The translations under genes were made by a program, and so were the position numbers. A stretch of 41,406 nucleotides of DNA, taken from the NCBI GenBank assembly GCA_030849075.1, contig JASAOO010003324.1, positions 1 to 41,406 of the forward strand, given 5' to 3'. Under the pieces are notes generated by a model that worked only from the letters and a program-made list of their open reading frames with translations, made no database searches and was not told where the DNA came from. Shown here piece after piece: positions 12,308-40,283 of the stretch; positions within the stretch are counted from its first letter, which is position 1, and each line of letters opens with the position of its first letter. Source of the DNA: Zelonia costaricensis (lineage: Eukaryota; Euglenozoa; Kinetoplastea; Trypanosomatida; Trypanosomatidae).

Positions 12308-12325
12308 GCCGGTGCGATTGCAAAG

Positions 12326-12365
12326 CTGCGCCACCGAGCGAGAGAGGGAGAGAGGGAGGGATGAG
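12326..12365 (-). promoter_or_regulatory. Putative spliced-leader acceptor, Tim21/Coa1-like gene
   Basis: On minus, catccctccctctctccc and further pyrimidines lead to ggcgcAG at plus 12326-12327, 18 bases before the ATG. It is a strong polypyrimidine tract with the first AG after it. Confidence 0.5.
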
Positions 12366-13675
12366 CTGTGTGTGTGTGCGTGTGTGTGATATGGAGAAAT
12401 AGTTGGGCTAGAGGGAAGATCGATCGAGTTAAAGGGGGGAGGGGGACGAGAAAGCTGAGTGGGGGTGGTGGTGATCCGTGGGACCTCAAGAGCTGTGGTG
12501 CTACTGGCGGCATATATGTACATGTATAGCACCATTGAACAGCGGGGGATTGAATACACAGAGACGGGGAGGGTTTCGGAACGGGGACGGCGGGACAGTT
12601 GAACAGACGAAGCAGCGACAAAGGTAGGACACCGGTCGACTGCACACGCGGGGCGAGAGTTGAGGGCCATGCGCACCGATACCACGTGACCTCTCCCCTC
12701 CACAATAAGCAATGCGCTTTGCTGCGGCAATGGTGAGGCGAGGGTGGGGGGAGGGCGGCGTCTGGCACGGTGCACGCCCCCCCCCCTTCTCCCCCTCCTC
12801 GACAGTTACCCCGCAGGGGGCAGCTGGAGGAGAGGGTGAGGGCGATGGTGGTCTTGGATAGGGGGGGGGGGAGGAGGTCCCTGCGTGCGGCGTTTCCTGT
12901 TCCTTTTTTGGTGTTTCTGATCGAGTGGCAGCGAGGTGGCGCAGGAGAAGTGCGTGAGACGAGGGGGGAAAGAGGGGAAGGGGTGGGGGTTGGCAGTGGT
13001 GTTGGTGGGGGTGACGTCCCCGCACTGTACAATAGAGTAGGAAGGAAGAGGTCCGTCACGTGCCACGCGCCTGTGCGAGGAGCACGTAAGCAGGGGGGGG
13101 GGGACCGGGCGAGTACGAGTTACGACAAATAGGGGCTCGACGGCGGCAACCAGCGTGGGGTGTAGAGGTGGGTGGGGTGCGGTCGCGAAGCATGGGGGCA
13201 GGACGAACCTGGGGCGCAGAGCAGGCCACACAGCAAAGCAAGAGAAAAAGGAAGAGACGCTGTCATAGAGAGAAAAGAAAAAGAAAGAACAAGAGAAGTA
13301 GACGACGCGAACACGCAGACACACAGCTCCTTGTTGAGCTTCGCGAACACATCCACACACGCACGCATCTTCGTTTTTTTTTTTTTTCGTTTTCGCCGTT
13401 TCGACTGCTCTCGCCCGCTTCCCTTCACCCCTTCCACGTCGCCCGCTTGTAGTTTCACGGAGGAGAAAGCGGTGTTGAGGGGGAGGGGGGCGAAGTGAGA
13501 GGCTGAGGTGCTTCATAAGGGAGGAGGCGAAGAAGGGCGTGTGTGTCTGGGCCTGCGGGGTGTGTCTCTGTCTGTGTGGATGAGTCTGTAAGTGCGCAGG
13601 GTTCAGTTTGACCCGGCGTTGGAGCTGCGGTGGGGCGCGGGGCGGAGGGTGAGAGCCGCGGAAGAGGGGACGGGA

Positions 13676-16284: not shown

Positions 16285-18705
16285 TTACATCATGGTGCAC
16301 GTCACGCACCCGTTCTCCTTCACCTTGCGGGGGCAGCTGTGCTTCTTGGGCCGCGCGGCCCCTGGCGGTTTCAGGGGCGACGTGAGAGAGTCGACAGCGC
16401 CACGCACATTGCGGCACCGCTCCTGGTTGTCAGAGGGCACCGAGGCCAGCACGTCACCCTCCTCGACCCCGCCTTCCGTCTCGTTCTCCAAAGACGCCTG
16501 TGCACGCCACGCGGACAGTTGCGAGCGGTGCGCCTCCACCGCCTCCTGCACCATCGGCAGCGCACTCCACAGCGCTTGCTTGTCCAGACAGATCTGCTCG
16601 AGCAGCTCCACCGTCCGGCCATGTGCGCTGACCCGGGGACGGGCATCGAGCACCTCCGGCTCCAGCGCAAACGTCACGTGCCGTGAGTTGCGCCGCCGCG
16701 TCAGCGACTCGGTGGCGGACAGGGCGGAGCCCAGGAGTGGGGAGGCGACGTGGGACGGGGCGCTGTGGGGGGACAAGGAGGGGCCCTCCACCTCGTCGCG
16801 GTCGAAGGAGGCGGAGCAGATGACGTACTTGAGGCGCCTCGGCGGGACGGGCGACGCCGACGCGCTCGTGCGCTTGAGGCAGGACACGAGCGGCGACGCG
16901 GGTGCGAGGTTGGGGCTCCCACAGGCGATGGGGCGGAGGCTGGTGGGTGGCCGAGGCATCGCGGCGTCGTCGACCACACCACTCATGGCACGCGTCACCG
17001 CGCCGTCCGTGCCGTCGCTGGAGAGTGGCGACATGTTCTGCGCGGTGAGCAGCAGCGGTGTCGCGCCGCCAGCCTCACTGTCCAGCGACGGCACGGACGT
17101 GTGCGAGGACAGCGCGGAAAAGGGCAGCGCGAAGGTGGACGTGCGGGGCGGCAGCGACGCAATGAAGTGCTCCGTGTCCATGCCTGCAATCGCGAAGGTT
17201 TCGTGTGGCACCCGCGCATCCTGCTGCTCAAAGCGGCGCAGCTCTTCGCGCAGGGCGGCGTTGGCGCGCCAGCACGTCTGCATGTCGCTGCCCAGCCGGC
17301 GCAGGTGCTGCAGCTGAGCTGCGATGACGCGGTGCGAGGTGAGGAAGCGCCGCCGCTCGTCAGCCACAACCCCGCGCGGCTCAAATGTGATGGCTATGCC
17401 GTCGTCTGCGCGCGCCTGCTCCACCGCGGGGTTGACAAGCCGCAGCTCGCGCTGAAGGGTGGCAAGGAGGTGCAGGAAGTGTGACTCGAAGAGACGAAGG
17501 GTGCTAACCTTCTGACGCCAGAACTGAATTGTGTTGGCCGCCTGCACCGTGCGGGTCCAGCTGAGGTGCTGCCCCTTCCCGCGAGACCGCTGCCGCGCGT
17601 GCTGCTCGTGCGCGTAGGCGGTGCGCAAGTGCTCGGTGAGCTGCAAGAGGGTGTGCAGCTGCCGCTGCAGGCTTGCCACACCGCTCAGGAACACCTCGTA
17701 GGCGTCCAGCGACTTCAACGACGACAGGCGGCTGCGACACCGGACGGGCAACGCCGTGACGGAAGCGCTGACGCCGTCGTTCTGCGACGACGCGACGCTG
17801 TCGATGCACGGTTGTTCCACAACGGGACAGGGCCCCGCTCCGGTCAGCGAGTTGCCATCCGCGTACGATTCAACGTGGTCATCCTCGTCTTCCTGATCTT
17901 CGACTCCGTCAAAGCTCTCGACGTCGTCGTCCGGCTGGCGCAGCACGTACCCGCAGCCACACGGCGCGAAAGGGTCGGGCGTCGCCTCCAGACCCTGCGG
18001 TGGCACCTCGGCGCCGTCACGTGCGCCTCCCCTCGGCTTCGCCGTCCCCACTGCCACCCCCCGCGCCGTCGCGCTGCCACTGGTGGGCGTGCAGTTCGGC
18101 AGGGAGGAGACGGAGCGCCGCATCGAGCTCGGGAGGCCGGGTGAGATGAAGAGATCCTCTTCGAAGCCGTCGTCGTAGCGCACGCACGGCGATGTGTCGG
18201 GCGGGCTGGGCGCGGCGCTCTCGGGCGTCACCGCCGTGTAGTACGGCCGCAAACTGCTGTTGTTTGGGTCGTAGCCGTTGCGCAGGTTGTGATGCATCCA
18301 CCGGAGCTCATTCGCGAGCTGTGCGAAGAGGTGAGGGCGCTTGGCCTTGGACGTGGCCGCACTCGCGATGCTCTGCCCGCTTCCTGCGCCGCTAGCCGAC
18401 AGAGTCAGTGACACATTTCCGCCGGGCTCGCGTGCAGAGGCGAAGAAGCTGGCCGTGACGTCATCCACCTCGAAGTCGTGCAGAGAGGTAGCACTGTCAA
18501 AGCCGATCGCCGGGGGCGTCCCACGCGTGCCGGGCCGGCTCCCCGTGGCGTCCGAGACGTCCATCATACTCCCATTGCTCTGCACACGCGACAGCGAGCC
18601 GCTCGACGGGAACAGGGCGGCGCCGAGCGGGGACTTGAGGTGCCTGTGCTTGGCCTGATGCGACGCCGAGGACGATGGCAGCCGCGACGACCCTGCAAAC
18701 ACCAT
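16285..18705 (-). CDS. Hypothetical protein with RVxF-type motif and CaaX box
   Basis: The 806-residue protein is not recognised. The N-terminal 120 residues are Ser/Gly-rich. A conserved-looking block at 125-160 (LFAQLANELRWMHHNLRNGYD) follows. Acidic stretches lie at 258-282. A helical, coiled-coil-prone region runs from about 325 to 495 with LQRQLHTLLQLTEHLR and LREELRRFEQQ. At 675-679 RHVTF fits the RVxF docking pattern for protein phosphatase 1. The C terminus has a basic cluster (PKKHSCPRKVK, 786-796) and ends CVTCTMM: Cys803-Thr-Met-Met is a CaaX box predicted to be farnesylated, with Cys800 next to it as a possible palmitoylation site. Together these suggest a membrane-tethered scaffold or regulatory protein; that is inference. 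The start is the first ATG; an acceptor-like AG is 17 bases upstream, and the longer frame begins with TTG and reads CA repeat. Confidence 0.9.
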   Translation of the reverse strand: MVFAGSSRLPSSSASHQAKHRHLKSPLGAALFPSSGSLSRVQSNGSMMDVSDATGSRPGTRGTPPAIGFDSATSLHDFEVDDVTASFFASAREPGGNVSLTLSASGAGSGQSIASAATSKAKRPHLFAQLANELRWMHHNLRNGYDPNNSSLRPYYTAVTPESAAPSPPDTSPCVRYDDGFEEDLFISPGLPSSMRRSVSSLPNCTPTSGSATARGVAVGTAKPRGGARDGAEVPPQGLEATPDPFAPCGCGYVLRQPDDDVESFDGVEDQEDEDDHVESYADGNSLTGAGPCPVVEQPCIDSVASSQNDGVSASVTALPVRCRSRLSSLKSLDAYEVFLSGVASLQRQLHTLLQLTEHLRTAYAHEQHARQRSRGKGQHLSWTRTVQAANTIQFWRQKVSTLRLFESHFLHLLATLQRELRLVNPAVEQARADDGIAITFEPRGVVADERRRFLTSHRVIAAQLQHLRRLGSDMQTCWRANAALREELRRFEQQDARVPHETFAIAGMDTEHFIASLPPRTSTFALPFSALSSHTSVPSLDSEAGGATPLLLTAQNMSPLSSDGTDGAVTRAMSGVVDDAAMPRPPTSLRPIACGSPNLAPASPLVSCLKRTSASASPVPPRRLKYVICSASFDRDEVEGPSLSPHSAPSHVASPLLGSALSATESLTRRRNSRHVTFALEPEVLDARPRVSAHGRTVELLEQICLDKQALWSALPMVQEAVEAHRSQLSAWRAQASLENETEGGVEEGDVLASVPSDNQERCRNVRGAVDSLTSPLKPPGAARPKKHSCPRKVKENGCVTCTMM

Positions 18706-23674: not shown

Positions 23675-24856
23675 CTACATCTGTTCGCCAATGTTAGCTG
23701 GCAGTTCCTCAATCTGTGTGGCGTAGAACTGCTCAATATCGCGCAGCAGGCGCAGCTCATCGCGGCGGACAAACGTGATGGCGAGCCCGGTGCGCCCCAT
23801 GCGGCCGGTGCGGCCAATGCGGTGGATGTACTGCTCGCGCGAGAGCGGCAGATCGTAATTGAGCACTAGGGAGACGCGCTCCACGTCAATGCCACGGGCC
23901 CACAGGTCTGTCGTGATAAGCACGCGGCTGTGGCCGTCGCGAAACTGCCGCATAATCTCGTCTCGCTCCGCCTGCGGCATGTCGCCGTGCATCGCGCTCA
24001 CCGTGAACTTCTCCCGCGTCATCTTCTTGGCCAGCTGCTCCACCTTCTTGCGCGTGTTGCAGAAGACGACGGCGTGGGCGATGGTGAGGCTGTCGTAGAG
24101 TTCCATCAAGACATCGAACTTGTTCTTCTCCTCATCCACGGAGACGAAGTACTGCTTGATACTGTCGACCGTGATTTCATCTCGCTTGACAAGAATGCTC
24201 GCCGGCTCCGTCATGAACTTCTCCGTCATCTCGAGCACATCGGCCGGCAGCGTGGCGGACACGAGGATGACCTGCAGTGGCGGCACCATACGGTAGATGT
24301 CGTGAATCTGTGCCTTGAAGCCCTTGCCCAGCATCTCGTCCGCCTCATCAAGCACGAGCGTCTTCAGCCCGTTCACGCGGAGGCTCTTGCGGCGGATCAT
24401 GTCGAACACGCGGCCTGGCGTGCCGGAAACGATGTGCACGCCGCTCTCGAGGCGGCGGATGTCCTCCTCGGTGCTCTTGCCGCCAATGCAGGCGTACGCC
24501 GTGAGCCCCATGTGGTGGCCGATGTTGTTGCACAGGTCCTGCGTCTGCACGGCGAGCTCGCGTGTGGGGGAGAGGATCAGCGCCTGCGTCTCGCGGGTGC
24601 GCGGCTCGCATGCTTGGAGGAGGCAGACACAGAAGGCGGACGTCTTGCCGGTACCGGAGGAGGCCTGCGCAATCACATCGCGGCCTTGCAGGAAGGGGGC
24701 AATGAAGCGTTTCTGGATGGCGGTCGGCTGCTTGTAGCCGAAGCTGTACATGCCCTTGAGAAGCGCTTCCTTAAGCCCCATCGCCTCAAATGTGGGGATA
24801 GCCAGAACGTTGGCCTGGATGTCGTCCACCTGCTCCGCGTCCATTGCTGCAGCCAT
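23675..24856 (-). CDS. FAL1: DEAD-box RNA helicase, eIF4AIII/FAL1 type
   Basis: A complete 393-residue DEAD-box ATPase, the usual size of the eIF4A group, which unwinds RNA or clamps on it. All motifs are intact: Q motif around GYKQPTAIQ (40-48), motif I ASSGTGKT (65-72, Lys71 binds ATP), Ia PTREL (97-101), GTPGR (145-149), DEAD (170-173), SAT (200-202), motif IV VVFCNTR (263-269), TDLWARGID (316-324), and HRIGRTGR (345-352). The Trp in the motif V region and the C terminus ([19 protein letters not shown]) point to eIF4AIII/FAL1 rather than translation factor eIF4A1. In other eukaryotes eIF4AIII is the exon junction complex anchor and acts in rRNA processing. I recall a Leishmania homologue on chromosome 28, which I cannot confirm. 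The first ATG lies 17 bases after a strong acceptor-like AG; a second ATG follows four codons later. Confidence 0.97.
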
Positions 24857-25470
24857 CGTCGTTTTTCCAAGAGCTGGGGTGCGGGAGAGGAAGAAAGGCG
24901 AAGTAGACAGGAAGAAAAAGGCGAGATGAGAGCTCCAGAAGAGCTGATGCAGATGGGAGGAAGGGAGGAGGGTATGGGGCGTCGTTGTAGACGCGCAACC
25001 TGCCTTTCTTGGCGATGCTCGACCTGCTGATTTCTCCATGTGTGTGTGTTTGTGTATGTGGGCGAGGGTGTGTGGCGGTTCGCGGTGCAGAAAGGGGAGG
25101 CGAAAGGGAAAGACAAAGGCTGGCGAGATAGGAGAGCGGGGCGGAGGGATAAGAAGAAGGGCATACTCGGGTCGCCAGACGCAGAACTCCCCCTTTCTGC
25201 CTTGCGACTGCGTCAGCACGTGCGCTGGGGTACCTGCAATGGGACGCTGCTGACTCATCGCGCACGTGTGTGTGTGTGTGTGTGTGAGTGTTTGCGTTTG
25301 TGTGCGCGCACGTGGTTGTAGACCGTGCTCGAAGTACAACATGAACGCAACAAGCGGCGCGTGTAGTTCGGGCTTCCCCCGCACACTGGAGAAAGGAAAA
25401 GAGAGAGAGAACGGAGGGCAAGCAGGAAGGCGGGGGCGGGCGCGTCGAATGGGATGACACGCACAGCGGG
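24857..25470. other. Short intergenic region
   Basis: Contains the helicase 5' flank, a (TG)n run at about 25266-25287 with further TG-rich sequence, and the 3' flank of the coiled-coil gene. No gene is seen. Confidence 0.75.
24874..24926 (-). promoter_or_regulatory. Putative spliced-leader acceptor, FAL1-type helicase
   Basis: On minus, a 50-base pyrimidine tract (cctttttcttcctgtctac and onward) ends in caccccAG at plus 24874-24875, 17 bases before the ATG. It is the clearest such site in the window. Confidence 0.55.
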
Positions 25471-27444
25471 CTAGCGAAGGGTCGGCGTGGTGGCGAGCGT
25501 GAGCCTTGAGTGTGTCGTGGCGGCATCCACCTCCTCCCGCAGCCGCAGCGCGCGCGACACCATCTGCTCGCGGTGAAGCGACTCTCGCAGCTGGGCCATG
25601 ACGCCAGTGCTGCGCCGGCACGCCTCCTCGAGCAGGCGGTTGCGCTGCTGCACGCTGGCGAGTCGCGTCTGCACGTCGACGAGGGCCGGCGCTCGTCGGG
25701 CCTCGTCGAGGCTGCGCTCCATCACGCTGCGAAGGACGCTCGCCTCGCTGCGGCTTTGCTCCTCCAGCACCAGCCGCGCTGCCGCTTCAGCCTCTGCCCG
25801 CGCGCGGCAGCGCGCGGCCACTTTCTTGAGCTTCTCCACCTCGGCCGCCCACGCGTCCACCTCGGCCTGCATCTTTGCCTTGTCGCTGGTCGTGGCTGCG
25901 GCGCCGTCGCGCTCGCGGGCCTCGGCCTCTGCCAGTCGACTGGCCCACGTTGCGTCGCGCTGCGCAAGAGCTTCTTCGTGGCCCTCAGCGAGTGCTGCCA
26001 TCGCCTCGGCGTGGCGGTCCTGCACGGCGCGGAGCTCGGCCTGGTGCTCCGCCTTGACCGTGTCCAGCGCCTCCTGAAAGTTGAAGGCGTGCCGCTCCGT
26101 CTCCCGCAGCTGCGCCTGCGTTGCCTGGAGCACGGCTTCCATAGCCTGCACGAACTCCTGCTGCTTGCGCAGGGCGACAACTTCTTTATGGGCCGCCTTG
26201 GCTTCGTCCTGCGAGGCGCGGAGCCGCTCCTCCAGCACGGCCTTGTGCCGCTCCGCCGCCTGCAGGCTCTCTTCCACGCCCTGCAGCTTGGCGCTGGCAG
26301 CCTCGGTGGCGGTGCCGTGCTGGTGGCGCAGGTGGCGCTCCTTATCGGCCAGGCTGATGTAGCGATCGCGCAGCGCCTGCATCTCCTCCTGCGCGGCGCT
26401 GTAGCGCTGCTGCAGCTCCGCCAGTGCCGACTGCTGCTCCCTGCCTTCCTCCACCCTTCTGCTGAGCTTCGCCAGGCGTAGGCGGTGCTGCTCCTGCTCC
26501 GTCAACAGCGCCTCGTGACGGTCGGTGAGGCGGCGCAGCTCGTCCTGCGAGGCGGCGAGGGCGCAGCCGAGACGGCGCACCTCGCGCGCCGTAGCGCGGT
26601 GAAGCCCCTCTGCCGCAGCACACCGCTCGACGAGCAGGTCCACGACGCTGTCACGCTCCTCCGACGCCAGCGAGCTGCACGCTTGTGCCTGTCGCGCCAG
26701 CTCCGCCTGTGCGGTTAGACGTTGCTGCAGCTCGTGCGCCGCGCTCTCGGCGAGGTCGGCGCGACGCGCGTGGTGCTGGGCCTCCATGCCGGTCCGGTGC
26801 AGTGCCTGGGCCTGCCTCTGCGCGCTTGCCTCGCCCTTCTGCCGTGTGGACGCATGCAGCGCCTCCCACTGGGCGACGGTGGTCGACGCCAGCGCCTCCT
26901 GCGCGGCTGCGAGGAGCCGTACACTGTGCACCTCCGACGCTGCCTCACACAGGGTCTGCAGGGACGGGAGTGCGGCCTGCTCGAGTGCGCGCCGCTCCCG
27001 GTCCTCGGAGGCGGTCAGGAAGTCCACCACGTAGCCCTCCCACTCGCTGCAGCACCACTGGGCGTACTGCATTCCCTGCCGCAGACTGCGCAGCTCTGCG
27101 GCCATGCTCCGCACGTCCTCGACCACGTCGCGCAGCCCGTGATCGAGCTCGGAGGGGCGGTCCAGCACGACACGCAGCTCCGCCATGCCCTCCCGCCACG
27201 CCGCGCTCTCGGCGTCCTGGGCCGCGATGAGAAGCTGCTTCTCACGCAGGTCCGCCTGGAGAGACGCGACGAGGACCTGCGTGGTGCGCAGCTGCGCCTC
27301 CAGCTCCTCGCGTGCCCCCAGCGCCTGCTCCACGAGCCGGCGCATGCGCTTGTTGTCCTCGAAGAGCTTCAGCGCATCGGAGTCCTTCTCCGCGATGGTG
27401 GCGAAGTAGTTCTGCAGGATGACGTCGACATCGCTGTCGGACAT
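25471..27444 (-). CDS. Coiled-coil protein, hypothetical
   Basis: The 657-residue protein is almost entirely predicted coiled coil, from about residue 25 to 640. It is rich in Ala, Glu, Gln, Arg and Leu, with continuous heptads such as [25 protein letters not shown] near the start (key Leu, Val and Ala at a/d positions) and many Ala/Gln-rich repeats. The N terminus ([32 protein letters not shown], given here only as its general acidic and helical character) is the least repetitive and may be a small capping domain. No membrane segment is seen. Such proteins in trypanosomatids are often flagellar, basal body or cytoskeletal, but nothing here proves that. The start is the first ATG after an acceptor-like AG 84 bases upstream; a longer frame through 27726 covers pyrimidine-rich UTR. 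Confidence 0.93.
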
Positions 27445-28830: not shown

Positions 28831-29499
28831 TTACAGGCCCATCTTCCAGCGCACCGCCGCCGCCCGGTCGGCCCTGTCGTCTTCGTCGTCGTCGCCGTCT
28901 GCACCGCCACCGAGGTGGTCGTTGAGAAGTCGAACCTCCTCGACATCCTCACGCTGCTGCAGCTGCGCGGCCTCCTCGTCCTCGGACAGTCGGCGGTCCG
29001 CCGCGCGGTGAGCGACGGCGCACGACGAGGCGGCTGACGTGGCGAGCAGCGGCGCCGGTGGAGGGGGTGCGCGGCGCGTTGCCGGCCCGTGTGCGAGGGC
29101 GGATAGGCGCCGCTGGTCGTCTGCGTGTGCCTGTCTCTGCGAGTCCTGCTGCGACTGCATTTGCCGGTGCCGCGGTGAGGCCCGCATCGCGAACAAGGAG
29201 CTGCTGCGACCAGCTGACGAGGGCGTCAAGTGGTGCTGCTGCTGCTGTGTTGGAAGTGAGGTGTGGGCGAGTCCGTTGCCGTCGCCTCGCTGTTGCTGCG
29301 TCAGACGCGCCTCGAAGGCCGCGATGGCGTCGGTGGAGGGTCCGAAGTCGGTGTCGTCATCGTCGTGCTCGTAGACGCCTTGCAGCATCGGGTCGGCCGA
29401 GCCCGTGACAGGGCTGACGGTGGAGGTGGCGAGGGGTGGCGACGCCGCGGGGGGTGCTGCTGCACCCTTCACCGGATTCGAGCGTGCCTTCGGCGGCAT
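28831..29499 (-). CDS. Acidic, Gln-rich hypothetical protein
   Basis: The 222-residue hydrophilic protein is not recognised. A basic/Ala/Pro-rich N terminus (MPPKARSNPVK) leads to an acidic patch DDDDTDF (46-52), a Q-rich part with QQQ and QQQQHH (68-90), and a basic/Gln helical stretch (107-131, MRASPRHRQMQSQQ). A Pro/Ala linker follows, then a second acidic region with SEDEE and GDDDEDD, ending in a short helix RAAAVRWKMGL. Mostly disordered by composition. The start is the first ATG; the longer frame begins with GTG. No AG lies between the ATG and an acceptor-like site about 138 bases upstream. Possibly a regulatory or RNA/DNA-binding protein, but function is unknown. It is less certain than its neighbours because of low complexity. 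Confidence 0.82.
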   Translation of the reverse strand: MPPKARSNPVKGAAAPPAASPPLATSTVSPVTGSADPMLQGVYEHDDDDTDFGPSTDAIAAFEARLTQQQRGDGNGLAHTSLPTQQQQHHLTPSSAGRSSSLFAMRASPRHRQMQSQQDSQRQAHADDQRRLSALAHGPATRRAPPPPAPLLATSAASSCAVAHRAADRRLSEDEEAAQLQQREDVEEVRLLNDHLGGGADGDDDEDDRADRAAAVRWKMGL

Positions 29500-30525: not shown

Positions 30526-30912
30526 TCAGAGGGCAAAGGCTGCAAAGCTGATGGTGAACCACCCGGTTGCCATCGTGAGACCACCCACGGGCCCGAGACG
30601 GCGCATGGCCTGCGGGGCGCCGCAGGCGAGGGCGTAGCGGGTGCCGGCGGAGATTGTGATGCCAATCAAGAACAGCGAGGCCGCTACGGTCATGCGGTGT
30701 GCTGCCTTGGGCCGCGTCGGGGCCAGTACCTCCGCGAGGGTCAGCGATACGAGGGCAGCCATGCCGTGCGTAACTTGGTAGCGCGCAGTTGAGATGAAGC
30801 TCAAGCGCTCCTTTTCGTCTGCCGTCTGGAGTCTGTGGGCACCGTAGGCGCCGAGCAGCAGACCCGTGCCACTTAGAAAGCCGCTGTAGGCGAGAAGCGG
30901 CGCGTAGACCAT
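30526..30912 (-). CDS. DUF423 (YgdD/TMEM256) family membrane protein 1
   Basis: A complete 128-residue, four-helix membrane protein (approximate helices 5-24, 44-63, 72-93, 106-127), the normal size of the DUF423 family, whose function is unsettled. Family hallmarks are present: GAYGAH (21-26), ARYQVTHGMAAL (43-54), SAGTRY (88-93), and LGPVGGLTMATGW (106-118). Both conserved histidines (26 and 49) are kept. It is the leftmost of five tandem paralogues and belongs to the subgroup starting MVxxPL and ending in xAxxL. The start is the first ATG; an acceptor-like AG lies about 33 bases upstream. Confidence 0.94.
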   Translation of the reverse strand: MVYAPLLAYSGFLSGTGLLLGAYGAHRLQTADEKERLSFISTARYQVTHGMAALVSLTLAEVLAPTRPKAAHRMTVAASLFLIGITISAGTRYALACGAPQAMRRLGPVGGLTMATGWFTISFAAFAL

Positions 30913-32769
30913 CGTGACGGAAAAAAAAAGGGAGAGAGACGGAGGCTCAAGATGGATGGGAGGGGACGGGGGGGGGGTGCGAGAAGGTGACGTGGATGAC
31001 GGTGCACACGGTTGACAGAGACACGGGAGCTCAGCACAGACACGAAGCGTTGTGAAGAGGGAGGGAAGCAGCGAGCGGTGTGAATGGTAGCTGGAAGGGG
31101 GTGGCGGGTGGCGGAAGAAGTCGGGAAAAGCAGATGGCAGTGCCTGGTTTGGTGAGTTGAAGATGGGCATGCTGGAGCGGCACGGACTCCTACAGAAGCG
31201 CGTGGCTAGGTTGTGACGCGATAGCGCCTCGATTAAGGCCGGGTAGCTCTGCTGCGATGCACTTCTTTACCGCGCAAACACACACACACACACACGAGAA
31301 AGGTGTCTTCTCCAGCACCATTGCCACAGGCCCGCACACACAATTGGTTCTGTTCTCGCTATCGTGTGTGTGTGTGTGTTCTCTGTCACTTCATTTGTGT
31401 GCGCTCTTTGCTGAACGGCGCGCACAAGTCGTGGACTGCGTAGCCCCCCCTCCCCCTCCACCCCCGGGGGATACTGGAAAAGAGGGATAGTGGGATCTTC
31501 GACAAGAGAGAGAAAAGAGGGCCTGTGTGTCCTGGAAAACGGGAAGGGGACGTTGCGGCTTCGCGTGCCGAATGCGTTTGCGTGCGTGAGTGGGAGTGTG
31601 CGTGCAAGCTTCATCTGGAACACATCGAGGACCTTCGTGGGCTGCAGCTCACCTTCACCAGACGTGGACACGAACACGAGCATCAGCAGCCGCGGAGAGG
31701 CAAAAGGCCGTCGAGTCGAAACGAGATGCGAATGCGCAGAACACCGGAAAGCACAAGAGTGACACGGTGGAATCCCCAAAAATGGGAAAACAACAAGAAA
31801 AACACAAGCACAAGCACGTACAGTTGGGTGATCAAGGACGGCTTAGCTTAAAAGAGCGACGGAGAAGAGGTCGAGCACGCAACGCGGGCCGCGACAGACT
31901 TGTGTCTCACTGAGAAGAGCTGCCGCTGCGAGCCCTCTCGCGCTCGGCTGCTCCTCCGAACGCAAGGGAACGCAGAAGCGCCGCAGATGCGCTGACGATA
32001 ACCAGCTTCGCAACTCACCTTTGCCTTGCTGTCTGGCGTGGCCGAGAGTGTGCGAGCGCCTCTCGCTGCTGCTCACCAACACACAAACACAAACGGACGC
32101 GCCGTGGACGAAGACCCTTTTCTCTCCACTGCCCTTCATGAGGAGCGGAGGGCAATGAGGCCTCACTCCTCGACAGCTCCAAGGCCTTCATGAATGCGCC
32201 CCCGTGCGCGTGTGTGTGTCTGTGAGTCTCTTCTTTGGAAGACCCACGAGTGCGGCACAAGGACGGCGAGTCGGTCAGGCGCGGGGCACAAGGCGGAGTG
32301 GCCCGTCATCGCGCAGCCCGTTGTAGGCATCCGAAGACGTAGGTGTGCTATTGGGTAGTTGGAAAAGAAACGGAACGGGCTAGATATGCTGTCGAGGAGG
32401 AAAACAAAAAAAAAATGCGTGCACCTGTGTCCTTCAGGAAACAAGAAGCATGATGACACGCACGCACAGACAAGCACGATCGTGCAGGGCCCTGAACGCG
32501 AGGTACGTCTGTGTCTGTGCGTGCGTGGGTGCGGGGCAGTAATTTTGGTGTGTCAGAAAGAAAACAGCGCGCGCGAGACAGAGACAGAGAGAGAGAAGAA
32601 AGAAGAGGAAACACGAGCACAATACGCGAACGCGGTACAGCACGTGGAGTCGCCCAGCCTTGCCATCCGCAGCACACGGGCTTCTCTCCACCAGAGACAA
32701 TAATCCAAAGGAAAGGCTGAGATCGACTCATGTTCTTTTTTTTTTTTGCTTTCAGTGAGTTCTTCAGTT
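30913..32769. other. Intergenic region in the DUF423 array
   Basis: No gene is seen in 1.86 kb. The part from about 31850 to 32350 is less repetitive than most non-coding DNA here, but open frames there lack proper starts. CA and TG runs lie at about 31279-31294 and 31365-31380, poly-A at 32406-32415, poly-T at 32737-32748. Confidence 0.65.
30946..30987 (-). promoter_or_regulatory. Putative spliced-leader acceptor, DUF423 gene 1
   Basis: On minus, caccccccccgtcccctccc and following pyrimidines lead to catcttgAG at plus 30946-30947, about 33 bases before the ATG. Confidence 0.45.
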
Positions 32770-33153
32770 TCACAGGGCGAAGGCGGCTACCATCTCGCAG
32801 CACCAGCCAAGCATAATGACGAGCCCGCCGATCGGGGTCAGAATGCCGACTTGCTTCGGGACGCCCAAGGCCATGACGTAGATGGTGCCGGCAAACAGGG
32901 TCGCCCCGATGACGAGCAGCCACGCCGCAACCTTCAGGCGCTTGGCCGCCGCCGGCTTCGAAGCGCTGAGCAGCTCAGCCAACGTGATGCTGACGAGGGC
33001 GGCGAGACTCTGCACCATCTGGTAGTGCGCGGCGGTGTTGAAGGCGATGCGGGTCTTGTCGTTGGCGTCCAGGCCATGGGCACTGAAGGCGCCGGCAATG
33101 ACGCCTGTCAGGCCGAGGAAGCCGCAGTAGAAGAGGAGGGGCGCGTAGACCAT
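32770..33153 (-). CDS. DUF423 family membrane protein 2
   Basis: A complete 127-residue, four-helix protein (approximate helices 5-25, 45-63, 73-95, 105-125) and the most canonical by sequence: GAFSAHGL (21-28), FAGTIY (87-92), LTPIGGLVIMLGW (105-117). The usual YQxxH is YQMVQ here, so the second conserved histidine is Gln48. Starts MVYAPLLFYCGF and ends AAFAL, clearly close to gene 1. The acceptor-like site is about 75 bases upstream of the ATG. Confidence 0.95.
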   Translation of the reverse strand: MVYAPLLFYCGFLGLTGVIAGAFSAHGLDANDKTRIAFNTAAHYQMVQSLAALVSITLAELLSASKPAAAKRLKVAAWLLVIGATLFAGTIYVMALGVPKQVGILTPIGGLVIMLGWCCEMVAAFAL

Positions 33154-33978
33154 GGTGGGCGATGGGGGTGCGGGGGCGAGGCGAGGAGGAAGGTGAGGGA
33201 GTGGCCGGAGACGGTGCTGGTGATGTCGCTGAGGGGGGACGGCGGGCGGGGGGGGAGAGGGTGCAGATGGCGCGAGTTGGCTGGCTGTGGTGCATAAAGG
33301 CGGAAGCTGTCCCGCGGCATTGGCGGAGGCGATGCGACGGGTGTAGTGGGGGGTGCGAGCAAACATGGCTCATGCAGAGAGGGAGAGAGGTGAGGCAGAG
33401 GGGAGGGGCGGAGGGGCCAGGGCAGATGTCCGCGCAGCGGCGCGGGGCGAGAGGGTTGCGTACCGGGCGTGCGACTGGCCGCAGCTGCAACGCCAGCACC
33501 AGCAGCAGTGCGGCGATGTGGGAGTCGACGGACACGGTCACCACATCGCGTGATAAAGCGCATGGGCACCGCGCGCGTGCCTGCCGCTGCATGGCGGCTG
33601 AATTTCGCCACTCCACACGCGTGCCTGGCGCTCCGCTCGTTTCCTGTTTCCGTCTGCTGGACCAATCGTGGCAGTATCACGAATCACAAGTTTCATCCGG
33701 CAGCTGCTGCTCGTCGCGACCGCGGCCTTGACACCGCTCATGTGCGCGAGCAAGCCGGCAGAGGGGATGGGAGGGGGAGGGGAGGGCGAGAGAAGCCATC
33801 GATCGATCGGTTGCGTGCGACGTCTACAACTATCTGTTTGCTTGTTGGTCTGCTGCGCTGCCACCCCTCTGGAGTGAGGGGGGGGGGTGCGTGGCACTGT
33901 GGCGCGCATCCATAGAGAGAGGAGGGGGAGGGGGCCGGAGGGCTGCACCGGCATCCCCGCTGGCAGGGGCGGCGCGGC
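33154..33978. other. Short spacer in the DUF423 array
   Basis: Only 0.8 kb separates genes 2 and 3, the shortest spacer in the array. No gene is seen. G-rich patch near 33880-33889. Confidence 0.7.
33229..33262 (-). promoter_or_regulatory. Putative spliced-leader acceptor, DUF423 gene 2
   Basis: On minus, ctctccccccccgcccgccg plus cccccctcAG ends at plus 33229-33230, about 75 bases before the ATG. A long pyrimidine tract with the first AG after it. Confidence 0.5.
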
Positions 33979-34362
33979 TCACAGCACGAGGGCGGCCGCG
34001 AGGACGGAGAGCCAGCCACCCATCATGATGTATCCGCCCAGCGGCGCCAGCCGGCGGATGGTCTTTGGCGCGCCGAACGTGCGGGCATAGATGGTGCCGG
34101 AGAAGAGGGAGGTGCCGACGAGGAACATCCACGCGGCGAGGTGCAGCCGCCGCGCCGCCGCCGGGTTCGACGTCTGCAAGCTCTTGCTGAAGGCGGTGGC
34201 GGCGAGGGCGGCCATGCTGTGCATGAGCTGGTAGTTCGCCCCCGTCAGGAAGGCGTTGCGCTCGTCCGGCGTCCTGCTCTGCAGCGCGTGCGAGCCGACG
34301 GCGCCGGCGATGACGCCCGTGCAGCCGAGGAGGCCGCTGTACGCGAGTGGGACGTTGACCAT
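33979..34362 (-). CDS. DUF423 family membrane protein 3
   Basis: A complete 127-residue, four-helix protein with GAVGSHAL (20-27), YQLMHSMAAL (44-53), FSGTIY (87-92) and LAPLGGYIMMGGW (105-117); both conserved histidines (25 and 48) are present. It belongs with genes 1 and 2 (start MVNVPLAYSG, end AAALVL). FSGTIY and a downstream GAP are very like the bacterial family. The first ATG is about 32 bases after an acceptor-like AG. Confidence 0.95.
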   Translation of the reverse strand: MVNVPLAYSGLLGCTGVIAGAVGSHALQSRTPDERNAFLTGANYQLMHSMAALAATAFSKSLQTSNPAAARRLHLAAWMFLVGTSLFSGTIYARTFGAPKTIRRLAPLGGYIMMGGWLSVLAAALVL

Positions 34363-37196
34363 GGCTGCTGGCTGCTTCAGCGCGGCTGGGGACGCTTGTG
34401 GGAATAACGAAGGGAGGGAAGGGGAGGTTGGTGCGGTTGGGCGAAGACAGTTGATGAACGGAGGAGGGTGCCTGTGTGTGTGTGTGTCTGTGTGTGTGTG
34501 GAGGGGCTGGGGGAGGCGATGTTGTTGGGGAGGGAGTGCGAGAGAGCGATAATCTGCGCAGTGATGTGGGGAGGGTGGGGACGGAGAAGATAGGGGGGGG
34601 GAGGAGGTGACGAGGGCTCGACTCTTGACAGAAAGGGAGAGGGTGTGCCGGGGGGGGGGGGGGGGGAGGGGCTGGGTGTGTTGCACGGCTCGAGGAGAGA
34701 GTACACACGCTACACCCGACTGCAGGCACCACAGAACGCGGCTGCCAAGCGCGGCAATGCCGTCTGTGGATGCGAGGACCGACACGCTTTTCTCACGTGC
34801 GCGATGAGTTGCAGCGATGTCGCTTCCACTTTATTGCCAGGTGCTGAGAAGGAGGAGAGGTCGCGGTCGAAGAAGAAGGAAGAGGACGCCGACACACAAC
34901 CGGAGCACGCCTTGAAGTGAAGGCAGCTCCGGCGGTGACTCAATCGCGGTCTGCACTTCTGCTTAAGAAAAGAAGGCCGCTGCTGACGCGCAGTCAAACG
35001 CACAAACACACGCACACGTAGACGCAAACCCCCCGTCGCACCGCGGGTTCTCAACATCAAAAGGGAAAATTGAGAGAAAGTCGATCGAAGAGATAGAAGG
35101 GAGGGAGAGAGAAGGGGAAACAGAAAGACGTTGCGAAGGGGCGGGGGTAGAGTTGAGAAGGCGAGGGAGCAACCATCCCCAGATCTCGCCTGGGCGACAT
35201 CAAAAGCTGGGGCGTCATCGATCGGTGTTGGGGGGCGGAGAGTCGGTGCGTCGTCATGCGACCCCACGCGCGAGCCATCGAGGTCGCGTTGCGAGCAGCG
35301 GCAGCGGCAGGGCCTCCACGAAGCGAGGCGACGGGATGCTGAGAGAAGCTGGCATGCGCGCCGAACGCGCTCCGGAGACCGTCGCCGCAGGATGCACGCC
35401 TGAGATGGAGGACACTCCTACGTCAGCGGGCCCCCCAACGGAAGCTACTTGCACGTGCTTTCTGTGTGCTTCCTGCCCCCCCCCACCCTCCCTGAACGTG
35501 CATCAATGCCCGAGGGCGTAAACGCACTCTGCTATTGCCACACTCCATGCGCCCCCCTCGCTGCTGTTGTTTCTCCCTTCCGCCCTCGGCTGCCCTCCAC
35601 TGCTCCCCGCCTCTCACAGACGCTGACGGGGAAGCCGCGCTCGTACGTCACGCGTTCCCCCGCTCTTCACACGTGCTCAACAGCTTCCTCACCTCTGTTT
35701 TGATGGAAGGTCGGGTGCTGCCGCCGCAGCACACACACACACACACACGCAGTCAGGCGCCTCAGTTCAGTCGCTTCTCCCTTTTCCAACTGTCCCCCCC
35801 CCCTGCGTAGGAGCGCAGAATGGGATTGAGGGACGGCGACGGAGAACGAGCCGCTTCGCGTGTTCGCCCCCTTTTTGCGAGAGGAGGAGGGAGAGGGGAG
35901 GGGCCTATTCTTCCGTTTCTGGTGAGGCGGCACCAATCGACGCCGGGCCGCAGACAGCAACAACAACAAAAACAACCACAACAAAGAGAGACATTGCCGC
36001 TGGCGTAGACACACCGCTGCGTGTCACTTAGATGACCCCGCCGTGAACGAACCCTCCCCCCCATCTGCGACGTCGACCTTTGGTCCTCCGCTCTCATTTC
36101 CCGGTCGCAACACCGACGGGGGGGGGGCACTCGCAGTTCCCTCCACGGTTCCCTCCTCACTCTTCAAAGGCAAAAAGAGTACAACTTGTCCGACTGCGTG
36201 TTGGCGGTGACGCAAAAGAGTTGAGGAGAAGACAAGGAAAGCCGGACGACGCTGCTTGGCTGTGAAGTTGGAAAGCGTCGACACTACCGACGCACACACA
36301 GACGGAGAAGCGTAAAGACGCGGACTGAGGGAGAAGCCGGGTGCAGGTGCGGGAGGCGTGGAGGAGGAGCGCGCCGAAGGGCAGCCAGGGGTGCCACGCA
36401 AGCTTGAGAAAGGGGAAACGACACCGGAAAGAAAAAAAAACACAAAATAAAGAGAGGCGAAGCCACTGCGCCGTGCGTCACAGAGCTGGAAACGAGCGGG
36501 GGTGGGGTGGGGAGGGAGGAGGAGAGCTCGGAAAGAGACAAGAGCCGCTCAGTGGACAAACAACCGCGAGGTTGAGAGAATGAAGGGGGAGGGGAGAAGG
36601 CGGCGCAGCGGATGTAGGGAGGAGAGATGCGGCACATGACAGGCCACACGCTCGCCTCGCACTGATTCCTGTAAGTCCCCCCCTCCTGTGAAAACGTGGA
36701 GAAACACGCGAAGAGGACCAGGCGTGTGTGCGGCCCACTCTCTCCCCCGACTTCCTCGACTTGACCAGTTTCCTTTTTCCTCTACTTCATCCTCCACGCA
36801 CCCCTCAACAAGGCCACGCGCGCGGCGCCTCTCCTCAGAAACAACAGCGAACACACACACAAGAGAGAAAAAAAGGCACCAACACAGGGAAAGAACATCG
36901 AGCGCCGCACCGCAGCCACACCCACCACGGCGGTCATCAAGTCTCAACGAGGACACCCGTCAAGTCCAAAACACAAACACACACACACACATCGAGCACG
37001 AAGAAGAGGAACGCAGCGACACATGCTGCGGCGCACGTCGGCCATGTGCGTCTCTCGAAACTACGCTATGAAGCTATGAGAGTGCTTGTGTGTGTGGGGG
37101 GGGGGGGGAGGAGAAGGGTCGTCGCGACGCTCCCCATGCTCCTGCTCTTTCAAAGGTGGCCCCTGGATCTGCGCCTCTTCTCTCTTCGTCCTTGCT
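34363..37196. other. 2.8 kb spacer in the DUF423 array
   Basis: No convincing gene. Open frames at minus 34710-35267, 36024-36443 and 36549-36956 look weak; the last two begin with GTG. A 17-base G run is at 34650-34666, with CA and TG runs near 34478-34500, 35731-35748 and 36978-36990. The part about 35150-35600 is of more even composition. Confidence 0.6.
34395..34428 (-). promoter_or_regulatory. Putative spliced-leader acceptor, DUF423 gene 3
   Basis: On minus, cctccccttccctcccttcg and on to ttcccacaAG end at plus 34395-34396, about 32 bases before the ATG. Confidence 0.5.
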
Positions 37197-37595
37197 TTAC
37201 CAGTAGAGCCCGGCGAGGGCCACGTTGATCCAGCCCAGCACGAGCACCAGCCCGCTCGTTGGGGTGAGCGGGCCCATGAACTTGGGGCAGATACGGAGGC
37301 AGAGGGAGTAGATCGAGCCGGCAAACCCGAGGGAGCCGGCGAGGACGAGGTAGAAGCCCTTGTTCAGGCGCGACGCCGCCTCGGGCGACTCGACGGCCAG
37401 TGGCATCATCCACGCAATCGCGGCGAGCGCGACGGTGTGGGCGATGTGGTACTGGTTTGCCGTCAGCCACGACCGGCGCTGGCGCATGTTCAGCGTCGTC
37501 TTGAGCCGCGAGCCCAGCATGTCCATCGCGAAGCTGGACGCACCAACGCAGCCCACGATCACCATGGGCACCTGCGCGGACTTGAGCGAGGACAT
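37197..37595 (-). CDS. DUF423 family membrane protein 4 (divergent)
   Basis: A complete 132-residue protein with four hydrophobic segments (about 10-27, 49-66, 79-100, 112-131). The C-terminal half is clearly DUF423: FAGSIY (91-96) and LTPTSGLVLVLGW (110-122). The first half is divergent: the usual GAxGAH is replaced by GASSFAMDML, so the first histidine position is Asp25. NQYHIAHTVA (47-56) keeps His53. N-terminal MSSLKSAQVPM and the NQYHI motif group it with gene 5. The first ATG is 16 bases after an acceptor-like AG. Divergence may mean relaxed constraint or a new role. Confidence 0.9.
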   Translation of the reverse strand: MSSLKSAQVPMVIVGCVGASSFAMDMLGSRLKTTLNMRQRRSWLTANQYHIAHTVALAAIAWMMPLAVESPEAASRLNKGFYLVLAGSLGFAGSIYSLCLRICPKFMGPLTPTSGLVLVLGWINVALAGLYW

Positions 37596-37611
37596 GGCGC
37601 TGCAGTATGAG

Positions 37612-37692
37612 CTGAGGGACGACAGCAAAAGGCGTTGATGGATGCCAGAGGAGGGGGAGAGAGTGGGGAGGGAGGGAGCGGGGGGGGGGGGG
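37612..37692 (-). promoter_or_regulatory. Putative spliced-leader acceptor, DUF423 gene 4
   Basis: On minus, a run of about 14 C and pyrimidine-rich DNA (ctccctccctccccactctc and on) leads, through ccttttgctgtcgtccctc, to AG at plus 37612-37613, 16 bases before the ATG. Confidence 0.4.
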
Positions 37693-39261
37693 GAAGCGTA
37701 GGCTGCGGAACTGTGTAGACGCGGGGGGCGGCGGTAGAGAGTGGGGGCGAAGAGAGAGAGAGAGAGCTGATGGAGTTGAGACTTGTCTGAGCGTCGGGAG
37801 CGTGCCCGCATGTTTGTGCGTTAAGCGGGGGCGGAGGGGAAGGGGAAGAGGAGGGTGGGGCGAGAAATGAAGAGTCCGTGAAAGAGAATAGGGGAAAAGG
37901 AGGCAACTTCCTTGCGAAAAAAAAGGCAGCATCGGTGCAACCCGGCGCGATCCGGGAGCGCTAACGTGGACCGACTGACACACTGCGATGCAGTGTCCAA
38001 TAGGGTCAGGGAGGCCCGCCGCCTCTGTGCACACAGGCGGTGCATCGCCACCGTCAGCCTTCTGCCCGCGAGTGCACACGCCCGCGTAGGCTCTGCATAC
38101 ACGGACACCAAGTGAAACAGCTGCGTACCTCCTCTCAAGCTCACAACATGAAAAAGGCTCTTCGTTTTTGTTTTTTGGTTTCTCGCTTTATCAAATTCTC
38201 GTTTCACAACGTGACGACATCCCGCTTCGATCGTGTGTCGGCGCTTGCATTACTCCTCTGTCTGTCGCCGTCGTCCATCTCGCCAATTAGCTTTCCCTCC
38301 GCCTATGGAAGTCTCCAGAGGGGGAGGCGGATGGGTTGGGGTAGGGAGTGTTCCATCGGCATCTCTGGACGTGTGGCGCGCCGTAGCGTTTTGTCCCCGG
38401 TCGCAAGTGAGAGGAGGGCGGCGGGGAGCGGGGGCGGGAAGAAGATGAAAAAGGGGCCTGCTCCGTTTCACCTTGCCCATTTCTTTTTTTTTTGTGTGTG
38501 TGTTTTGATGGAGTCATTGATTGGTGTGGCGTAGAAGAAAGGAGGAGAGGGAAAAGAAAGAGAGGAGATGGGAAAAAGAGCGAAGAAGCAAGTGGAAGGT
38601 GTGTGTGTGTGTGTTTTAAAGGCTGGCTGGCGTGTGCTGACGCGCGCTCGCCGCACAAGGGTGCGGTGACGGCGAATGCGTAGTGCGGCGCTGTGTCGCA
38701 AAATGTGCGACTGGGCAATGGAAGACGCACTTGAACGCAAGGACCGCTTTTACCCATCCCCGTAACCGTCGCACGGAGAGGCATCCCCCTCCTCACCCGA
38801 CGGCACTACACAAACAAACACACACACGTACGTACCAGACGCACCCACAAATGGTGGGGGGGGGGTAAACCACTGGCGACCATGAAAATGAAAAAAAGAC
38901 CTGAAGAGGCCAGGAAGCGAGTCAGGCACGTTTAAGCCATGGGGGTGGGCAACCCACGCGCGAGCGAAAAATGGAAGAAAAACAAAGATAAGAAAGCGCA
39001 GGAAGAGAGGAGGGGACGGAGGGCAGGGGAGTGGGCCCGGGTTGTGGTGGTGTGGTTGGTGGGACTGGGGAGGAGGTTGTGGGGGGGGAAGAGGAGTCCG
39101 AGCGAATCGAAGCGTGGTGTGCACCAGCCTGGAAATGCGGCGGGAAACAGAGGAAAGGGCAAGGTGCGTGCAGCTCGGGGCTTCGGTAGCCTCGCCGCGT
39201 GGGCGGTTTTTTTTTTTTTGAACTCTTTGTTGTTGCGCGGTGGCGGCGCGTCAGCGGGGGG

Positions 39262-39325
39262 TGGGGTGGGGGGTTGAGAAGGGGGGGGGGAAACNTGGGG
39301 TGGGGGGTTGAGGGGGGGGGGAAAC
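39262..39325. repeat. 30-33 bp G-rich duplication around an N
   Basis: The sequence tggggtggggggttgag, then G-rich, then aaac, occurs at 39262-39294 and again at 39296-39325, with only the N at 39295 between. The copies differ near the G run. Same signature as the N at 4846, so probably an assembly join. Confidence 0.88.
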
Positions 39326-39866
39326 GCGAAAGAGGAAGGAGGACGCCCCTCCGGCAGGCACTGCTGCTGTCCTCAACGGCGTGCGTCCACACACGCTCCG
39401 ACAAGGAGAGAAAGAATGAAGGGAGAGATGGGGAGGGGGGGGTGAGGCGCTACACACGGGAGCAGCTCGCGGTCACTCAGCGCTAAAGACGGTACAAAAA
39501 AAAACCCAAACACGTGGCAAAGAAGGAGCAGACGTGTACGGGGGAAAAAAAAGCTAGAGGGGACCGGGCGATCGCCTGACCAGCACCGCAAGCGAACGCC
39601 AACGCACACACGCGCACGCACGCAGACTGTCAGCTGCGCTGCGCTTGCCTTCTTGTGTAGAGATGGAGGACAAGAGGCAAAACAACAACAAAAAAAAACA
39701 AGCCACACATGGACGGCGGCGAACCACCGACTCTCCGGCTTTGCAACACTCGGTGCCGCCGGCATCTTGTTCAACCGCCGTCATCGCCACGCCGCCTCAC
39801 CGCCTGTCTTCCGCCCACTGACCCGACTCGCTCGTCTGCGTCGCACGCTGCGGCACGTTTCCCTCC

Positions 39867-40283
39867 CTACGCCTTCATCTGGGAGCCGCCAAGGCCGACG
39901 CAGACCCAGCCCGCGGCGAGCAAGATGCCACCCAGCAGCGGTGTCTGCGCCAGGAAGTGCGGCTTGTGCACGGTGCTGTAGACGTACCGCGAGCCCGCGA
40001 GCACCACCGTACCGGCGGCGAAGAGAGCGTACGCGCGGCGGAAGTGCCCTGCCGCCGGCTCCGACAGACGCGGCGCAATGGAGGCAACGACGAGCATGGC
40101 GACGGAGTGGACAATGTGATACTGGTTGCCCACGTTGTACGCCTTGAACTGGTTCGTGTCCATCAGCTCGAGGAATGCGTGCGAGCCGAGGGCACCGAGC
40201 ACGACGCCGAGACCACCCGACAGGGCCGCTGCCATCATGGGCACGTTCGCGCCAGAGAGTGCCGTGCGAATGCTAGCCGACAT
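39867..40283 (-). CDS. DUF423 family membrane protein 5
   Basis: A complete 138-residue protein with four hydrophobic segments (about 15-35, 55-72, 84-102, 113-132). It has GALGSHAF (30-37), NQYHIVHSVAML (53-64), LAGSRY (95-100) and LLGGILLAAGW (116-126), and keeps both conserved histidines (35 and 59). It has an N-terminal extension (MSASIRTALSGANVP) and a short hydrophilic C-terminal end (GGSQMKA). NQYHI places it with gene 4. It is the first of the array to be transcribed in this window; more copies may lie beyond the right edge. The first ATG is used. Confidence 0.95.
   Translation of the reverse strand: MSASIRTALSGANVPMMAAALSGGLGVVLGALGSHAFLELMDTNQFKAYNVGNQYHIVHSVAMLVVASIAPRLSEPAAGHFRRAYALFAAGTVVLAGSRYVYSTVHKPHFLAQTPLLGGILLAAGWVCVGLGGSQMKA

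What the first reader, a model, noticed from the sequence alone, without database searches (positions are those of the whole stretch)
30526..40283. Tandem array of five diverged DUF423 (YgdD/TMEM256) membrane-protein genes
Five consecutive complete genes encode four-helix proteins of a small, functionally unsettled family. I know the family as usually one copy per bacterial genome and one TMEM256 in animals. Five diverged, adjacent, intact copies in a trypanosomatid-like genome suggests local expansion and possible specialisation (different organelles, life stages or hetero-oligomers). All have intact frames and probable splice acceptors. This is the best candidate for an undescribed system in the window.
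Basis: partly seen in the sequence, partly recalled or inferred. Interest (0 to 1): 0.75.

Follow-up and report, generated by a model that had tools for sequence, protein, structure and literature searches.

The report
Five-gene array of DUF423 membrane proteins
A Leishmania-like single-celled organism carries five side-by-side, diverged copies of a small four-helix membrane protein that bacteria usually have once; three of the copies are shared with its relatives and may form one mixed assembly, but that has not been tested.

Summary
Five intact minus-strand genes (30526-30912, 32770-33153, 33979-34362, 37197-37595, 39867-40283) exceed the Pfam DUF423 cut-off, and a search of the window's genome finds five DUF423 matches, all here.
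"Local expansion" needs correcting. Copies 3, 4 and 5 are orthologues of three paralogues in Leishmania, Leptomonas and Novymonas, under neighbouring locus tags in four named species. Copies 1 and 2 form an extra clade with one Novymonas protein and unnamed ones. In one bacterial phylum (398 genomes) 213 of the 216 with a match have one copy.
Copies 4 and 5 lost residues kept in nearly all of 143 bacterial-type homologues, yet are better conserved between relatives (about 80%) than copy 3 (69%), which kept them. Models of copies 4 and 1 are confident four-helix bundles; the best, cautious fold match is haem-copper oxidase.
E. coli YgdD was modelled by others as a homotrimer. I favour three non-equivalent subunits of one heterotrimer in the mitochondrial inner membrane. 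Mixing, location and function are inferred. My paper searches found nothing on these genes.

The parts
39867..40283 (-). c5: DUF423 gene, 138 aa, first in transcription order; type 5 paralogue shared with Leishmania, Leptomonas and Novymonas
   Evidence: PF04241 59.2 bits; type 5 clade 100/99; codon score 0.51
37197..37595 (-). c4: DUF423 gene, 132 aa; type 4 paralogue, lacks the helix-1 GA..H positions of the family
   Evidence: PF04241 55.4 bits; type 4 clade 100/99; AlphaFold model pLDDT 95.8; positions; codon score 0.58
33979..34362 (-). c3: DUF423 gene, 127 aa; type 3 paralogue, keeps all 11 near-invariant family positions
   Evidence: PF04241 76.4 bits; type 3 clade; positions; codon score 0.71
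32770..33153 (-). c2: DUF423 gene, 127 aa; extra clade with c1; near-invariant His of helix 2 is Gln
   Evidence: PF04241 76.9 bits; 94% identical unnamed relative P0064; codon score 0.57
30526..30912 (-). c1: DUF423 gene, 128 aa; extra clade with c2, nearest to Novymonas NESM_000864300
   Evidence: PF04241 52.3 bits; pairs with P0008 100/99; AlphaFold model pLDDT 96.7; codon score 0.31, the weakest of the five

Best explanation
The locus is an old tandem family of DUF423 (YgdD/TMEM256) genes. Three members (c3, c4, c5) are a core set, seen one each in four named relatives; c1 and c2 are extra members that group nearest to type 3. Each product is a small membrane protein, with four helices in the two copies modelled. 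The most likely working is that three non-equivalent subunits (types 3, 4 and 5) make one heterotrimer in the mitochondrial inner membrane, where bacteria would use a homotrimer. There it would help assembly or stability of import or respiratory complexes, with c1 and c2 as alternative subunits. Shown here: family, intactness, adjacency in the contig, orthology, the pattern of kept and lost residues, predicted fold of c4 and c1. Inferred: trimer (published model of E. coli YgdD), subunit mixing, mitochondrial place, role.
Against: No oligomer was modelled or measured. That c4 and c5 lose different positions would happen by chance about 38% of the time (21/55, worked by hand), so it is no evidence in itself. 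One of 12 type 3 orthologues (L. seymouri) also lost His48. Helical bundles often reach high Z; unrelated bundles score 10.0-10.3 in the same lists as MAPEG rows, and Foldseek found nothing at E <= 0.001 for c4. The review's statement on TMEM256 silencing cites a paper whose held text does not mention TMEM256. E. coli YgdD is linked to uptake of proline-rich peptides, a different role. Complete trios were seen in only four named species; Porcisia, for example, lists types 4 and 5 only. No targeting signal was tested. c1 has weak codon bias and could be decaying.
Confidence: 0.35

Rival explanations
1. The copies work separately: each makes its own homotrimer, used in different membranes, life stages or for different partners.
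For: Each type is separately conserved and forms its own clade, types 4 and 5 on long stems; both modelled copies keep the four-helix fold; shared polycistrons do not imply joint function in trypanosomatids (general knowledge).
Against: Types 4 and 5 lost positions kept in nearly all bacterial-type and animal homologues, which is easier if a partner supplies them; the trio stays together in several genera by locus tag.
Confidence: 0.35
2. The diverged copies took a new job, for example small-molecule or peptide passage across a membrane, as suggested by the accessory role of YgdD in uptake of arthropod proline-rich peptides in E. coli.
For: YgdD accessory role in uptake of arasin and probably other proline-rich peptides (PMC8801401 and PMC11678341, passages); type 4 carries an Asp in helix 1 where the family has Gly, in c4 and 10 of 11 orthologues.
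Against: Whether YgdD is itself a transporter was unsettled in the review passage read; nothing tested here bears on transport.
Confidence: 0.12
3. Redundant duplicates under relaxed selection; the array matters only for dosage.
For: c1 has weak codon bias and lost Phe87; c2 lost His48.
Against: Types 3-5 keep 63-88% identity across six sets. The body of c2 is 94% identical to P0064 without a frame change, while the 43 residues that P0064 has upstream match the window in three different frames: insertions or deletions are tolerated before the gene but not inside it.
Confidence: 0.1
4. The family entered trypanosomatids from a bacterium and then duplicated, rather than descending from the TMEM256 of other eukaryotes.
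For: In the best tree the kinetoplastid-type rows lie among bacterial-type rows, away from three animal rows; the deep trypanosomatid-like P0036 is 40-42% identical to three bacterial-type proteins and 30-34% to three animal ones.
Against: A tree with kinetoplastids and animals together is not rejected (p-AU 0.263); few columns; only three animal rows and no other protists; kinetoplastid unity itself has support 63/78.
Confidence: 0.3
5. The adjacency is an assembly artefact.
For: The contig is one of 755 in a draft assembly, with no long reads at hand.
Against: Copies are too diverged to collapse, and the order of c3, c4, c5 agrees with locus-tag order in Novymonas, L. martiniquensis and two Leptomonas.
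Confidence: 0.02

Closest known systems
DUF423 / YgdD (UPF0382) of bacteria, TMEM256 of animals (Pfam PF04241)
   Same: Same Pfam family above cut-off, 127-138 aa, four helices in the two copies modelled, most near-invariant positions kept
   Different: Five tandem diverged copies instead of usually one; types 4 and 5 lack several near-invariant positions
Three-gene DUF423 set of Leishmania, Leptomonas and Novymonas (e.g. LSCM1_03172-03174, ABL78_7090-7092, NESM_000549900-000550100)
   Same: c5, c4 and c3 are orthologues and the tags run in the same order
   Different: Two more genes, c2 and c1, follow here; in Novymonas a c1 relative (NESM_000864300) is listed on another contig
Haem-copper oxidase subunit I (part of it) and MAPEG proteins
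   Same: Four-helix arrangement aligns over most of both models; the same trimer-like topology is reported for YgdD, MAPEG and the oxidase core (PMC4602095, section 13)
   Different: No match to either family in Pfam at E <= 1 or to any solved chain at E <= 1; unrelated bundles score close to the MAPEG rows; no enzyme activity implied

Membership tests
DUF423 (PF04241) | Score above the curated 25-bit cut-off | tested here: met
   52.3-76.9 bits for all five
DUF423 (PF04241) | Short protein of four transmembrane helices | tested here: met
   Four helices at high confidence for c4 and c1; c2, c3 and c5 were not modelled, only aligned and scanned for hydropathy, which did not resolve four segments cleanly in every copy
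DUF423 (PF04241) | The 11 positions kept in at least 141 of 143 bacterial-type rows and in all 4 animal rows | tested here: inconclusive
   c3 11 of 11, c1 10, c2 10, c5 9, c4 7; the profile match stands regardless, so this bears on function more than on membership
DUF423 (PF04241) | Trimeric assembly, as modelled for YgdD | not testable with these tools
   Only single chains can be predicted here; the published model was read in PMC4602095, section 13
NCBIfam PRK10873 (NF008125), an equivalog model for one DUF423 protein | Score above 162 bits | tested here: not met
   27.8-55.8 bits; that this model stands for enterobacterial YgdD is recalled
MAPEG | Sequence match to a MAPEG profile | tested here: not met
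   No MAPEG family among Pfam matches at E <= 1; HMMER's filters drop most matches above 0.1
MAPEG | Four-helix fold | tested here: inconclusive
Haem-copper oxidase subunit I | Sequence match and fold | tested here: inconclusive
Mitochondrial TMEM256 | Mitochondrial inner-membrane location | not tested
   No localisation data or targeting-signal test for these proteins

The most novel reading that the evidence does not exclude
Leishmania and its near relatives turned a homotrimeric DUF423 protein into an obligate heterotrimer of three non-equivalent four-helix subunits. That would be a three-gene counterpart of the three-unit core of haem-copper oxidase subunit I, with c1 and c2 as lineage-specific exchangeable subunits.
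Probability: 0.25. Interest if true: 0.7.

Novelty: new variant of a known kind. Interest (0 to 1): 0.42.

Why it matters
DUF423/TMEM256 occurs from bacteria to animals but its function is unsettled. A lineage that keeps three sharply different versions side by side shows by nature which near-invariant positions can be spared in which version. It makes the trimer proposal testable by co-purification in a safe laboratory flagellate. If the heterotrimer is right, it would be a separate-gene parallel of the three-unit oxidase core.

Tried and rejected
Solved-structure search with the five-row profile gave nothing at E <= 1. Foldseek against the PDB with the c4 model gave nothing at E <= 0.001; the c1 model was given only to the second-look aligner. 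An assembly artefact was set aside on divergence and tag order. Horizontal transfer was tested and left open (p-AU 0.263). Other minus-strand genes between the copies were looked for by codon score and not found; the plus strand was not scanned that way. Splice acceptors are uninformative against random positions. Complementary loss looked attractive but is not significant (about 0.38, by hand). A first count on a chosen 115 of the 143 bacterial-type rows gave 12 invariant positions; with all 143 and 4 animal rows Leu27 fell out (131 of 143), so the report uses 11. Papers: none in the held library has DUF423 with Trypanosoma or with Leishmania. A six-term search asking for any four held 227 papers and listed 10, none of which mentions DUF423 or TMEM256; TMEM256 with Leishmania was not searched as a pair. 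The general listings showed 25 of 70 papers with TMEM256 and 30 of 39 with DUF423. No listed protein hit is named Trypanosoma or Bodo; these searches need shared words, one search scored only the 7996 candidates sharing most words, and one search listed 120 of 241, so absence is not shown. One search was a wrongly guessed DOI that fetched an unrelated paper. One search ended in a script error and was finished.

Full report
What was checked. The window is positions 1-41406 of contig C514 of a 28.67 Mb assembly in 755 contigs. The genes recognised here all lie on the minus strand, as in a trypanosomatid polycistron. An eIF4A-III-like gene at 23675-24862 matches solved eIF4A chains over its length, human eIF4A-III among the best. 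The five genes of the finding are c1 30526-30912, c2 32770-33153, c3 33979-34362, c4 37197-37595 and c5 39867-40283, transcribed in the order c5, c4, c3, c2, c1. Each passes the curated DUF423 cut-off, and a search of the own genome gives five matches, all here.

Are they genes? A codon score trained on eight other genes of the window gives 0.31 for c1 and 0.51-0.71 for c2-c5. The 15 other minus-strand ORFs tested in or beside the array score below zero. A minus-strand scan in 150-nt pieces marks the five genes plus one marginal piece at 33455-33604. Antisense frames of c2-c5 score up to 0.34-0.54, so the score separates strands less well than frames (all). c1 is the weakest. Protein P0064 is 94% identical to c2 over its 127 residues. 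The 43 residues upstream of that start in P0064 match the window in three different frames, so frame-breaking insertions or deletions occurred before the gene but not inside it. Candidate splice acceptors precede all five, but such sites are also found at 66% of random minus-strand positions.

Relatives. Three protein searches and two trees place c3, c4 and c5 in three clades that each hold Leishmania, Leptomonas and Novymonas proteins. Complete trios were seen for L. martiniquensis (LSCM1_03172-03174), L. seymouri (ABL78_7090-7092) and Novymonas (NESM_000549900, 000550000, 000550100), and for L. pyrrhocoris with one tag between (ABB37_01657, 01659, 01660). Three proteins on an unnamed contig of 12,866 bases also make a trio, if equal contig length means one contig. 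Other named species appear with one or two types only (for example Porcisia with types 4 and 5). The database is clustered at 90% identity and the lists are capped, so this does not show loss. c1 and c2 form a further clade (bootstrap 99 and 98 for c1, P0008, c2 and P0064), with P0065 beside it at 96 and 93. P0008 is Novymonas NESM_000864300, listed on another contig than the Novymonas trio. Two pairs of unnamed, deeper proteins (P0036 and P0084; P0038 and P0083) stand by types 3 and 5. If they come from other trypanosomatids, the split of types 3 and 5 is older than the named group.

Copy number elsewhere. In 398 genomes of the phylum of the Methylobacter genome G006 (Pseudomonadota, by general knowledge), 216 have a DUF423 match at E <= 0.001, and 211 of the 398 have one over the family cut-off: 213 of the 216 have one match, two have two, and one has three, on three contigs with one copy interrupted by a stop (counts are lower bounds by the tool's note). 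In 27 genomes picked because they hold the gene, 25 have one and two have two. So no genome of these two sets shows a tandem array of three or more.

Residues. In all 143 bacterial-type rows held, 11 positions are kept in at least 141, and all 4 animal rows keep them. Numbered on c3 they are Gly20, Ala21, His25, His48, Gly83, Phe87, Gly89, Pro107, Gly109, Gly110 and Trp117. c3 keeps all. c1 loses Phe87, c2 loses His48, c5 loses Phe87 and Pro107, and c4 loses Gly20, Ala21, His25 and Gly109. Of 11 type 4 orthologues, all lack Gly20 (10 have Asp) and Gly109; 2 keep Ala21 and 2 keep His25. Of 12 type 5 orthologues, all lack Phe87 and Pro107. Of 12 type 3 orthologues, 11 keep all 11 positions; the L. 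seymouri one has Asn for His48. An earlier count on 115 chosen rows also listed Leu27, which does not hold in the full set. Types 4 and 5 are nevertheless better conserved across six sets (means 80.2% and 79.1%) than type 3 (68.9%). The derived copies c4 and c5 are therefore not decaying. That c4 and c5 lose different positions has a chance probability of about 0.38 (hand calculation) and is not evidence by itself.

How it may work. Published hints on function diverge. One review passage reports human TMEM256 with TIM23, OXPHOS complexes and prohibitins (PMC13267168), but the paper it cites for silencing does not mention TMEM256 in its held text (PMC11672691, term search and passages). Passages of two reviews report YgdD as an accessory or secondary factor in uptake of proline-rich peptides in E. 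coli (PMC8801401 and PMC11678341). Taking the trimer as the working unit, the simplest reading of three conserved, unequal paralogues is a heterotrimer of types 3, 4 and 5 in the mitochondrial inner membrane that supports import or respiratory complexes. I give this 0.35. Separate homotrimers with separate roles are as likely on present evidence. The identity, intactness and orthology statements are far firmer than the mechanism.

Origin. In the best tree the kinetoplastid-type rows lie among bacterial-type rows and apart from three animal TMEM256 rows, but a tree joining kinetoplastids and animals is not rejected (p-AU 0.263). Horizontal transfer remains an open option.

Verdict. A real and old gene array of a known family, shared in part with named relatives, on which my searches found no paper. 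Its reading as a local expansion is only partly right, and the proposed hetero-oligomer is a fair, testable idea without direct evidence.

Noticed in passing
window 11435-12670 (-): A gene whose only Pfam match is Coa1 (cytochrome oxidase assembly) at E 0.05-0.1, below the cut-off. If real, an oxidase-assembly-like gene sits in the same polycistron as the DUF423 array, though shared polycistrons mean little in trypanosomatids.
   Followed up: partly
window 23675-24862 (-): eIF4A-III-like DEAD-box helicase; best solved match 9if7_L7 'Probable eukaryotic initiation factor 4A', then human eIF4A-III. A possible synteny anchor for the array.
   Followed up: partly
window 2715-3773 (-): Alpha/beta hydrolase (PF00561, E 1.2e-20).
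   Followed up: no
window 5496-6488, 7949-9751, 16285-18705, 25471-27444, 28831-29499 (-): Five ORFs with no Pfam match at E <= 0.01; they were among the training genes of the codon score, so their high scores are not independent.
   Followed up: no
Novymonas NESM_000864300 (P0008): The c1 relative in Novymonas is listed on a different contig from its c3-c5 trio: either dispersed or split by the assembly.
   Followed up: no
Leptomonas pyrrhocoris ABB37_01658: By number this tag lies between the type 3 and type 4 genes; it was not in the hit lists, so what it encodes is unknown to me.
   Followed up: no
genome G124 (unnamed): The only bacterial genome of the 398 with three DUF423 matches, on three contigs, one with an internal TGA.
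   Followed up: no
type 4 orthologues, position 20 of c3: A charged Asp replaces the family Gly in helix 1 in c4 and 10 of 11 type 4 orthologues, unusual inside a membrane helix.
   Followed up: partly
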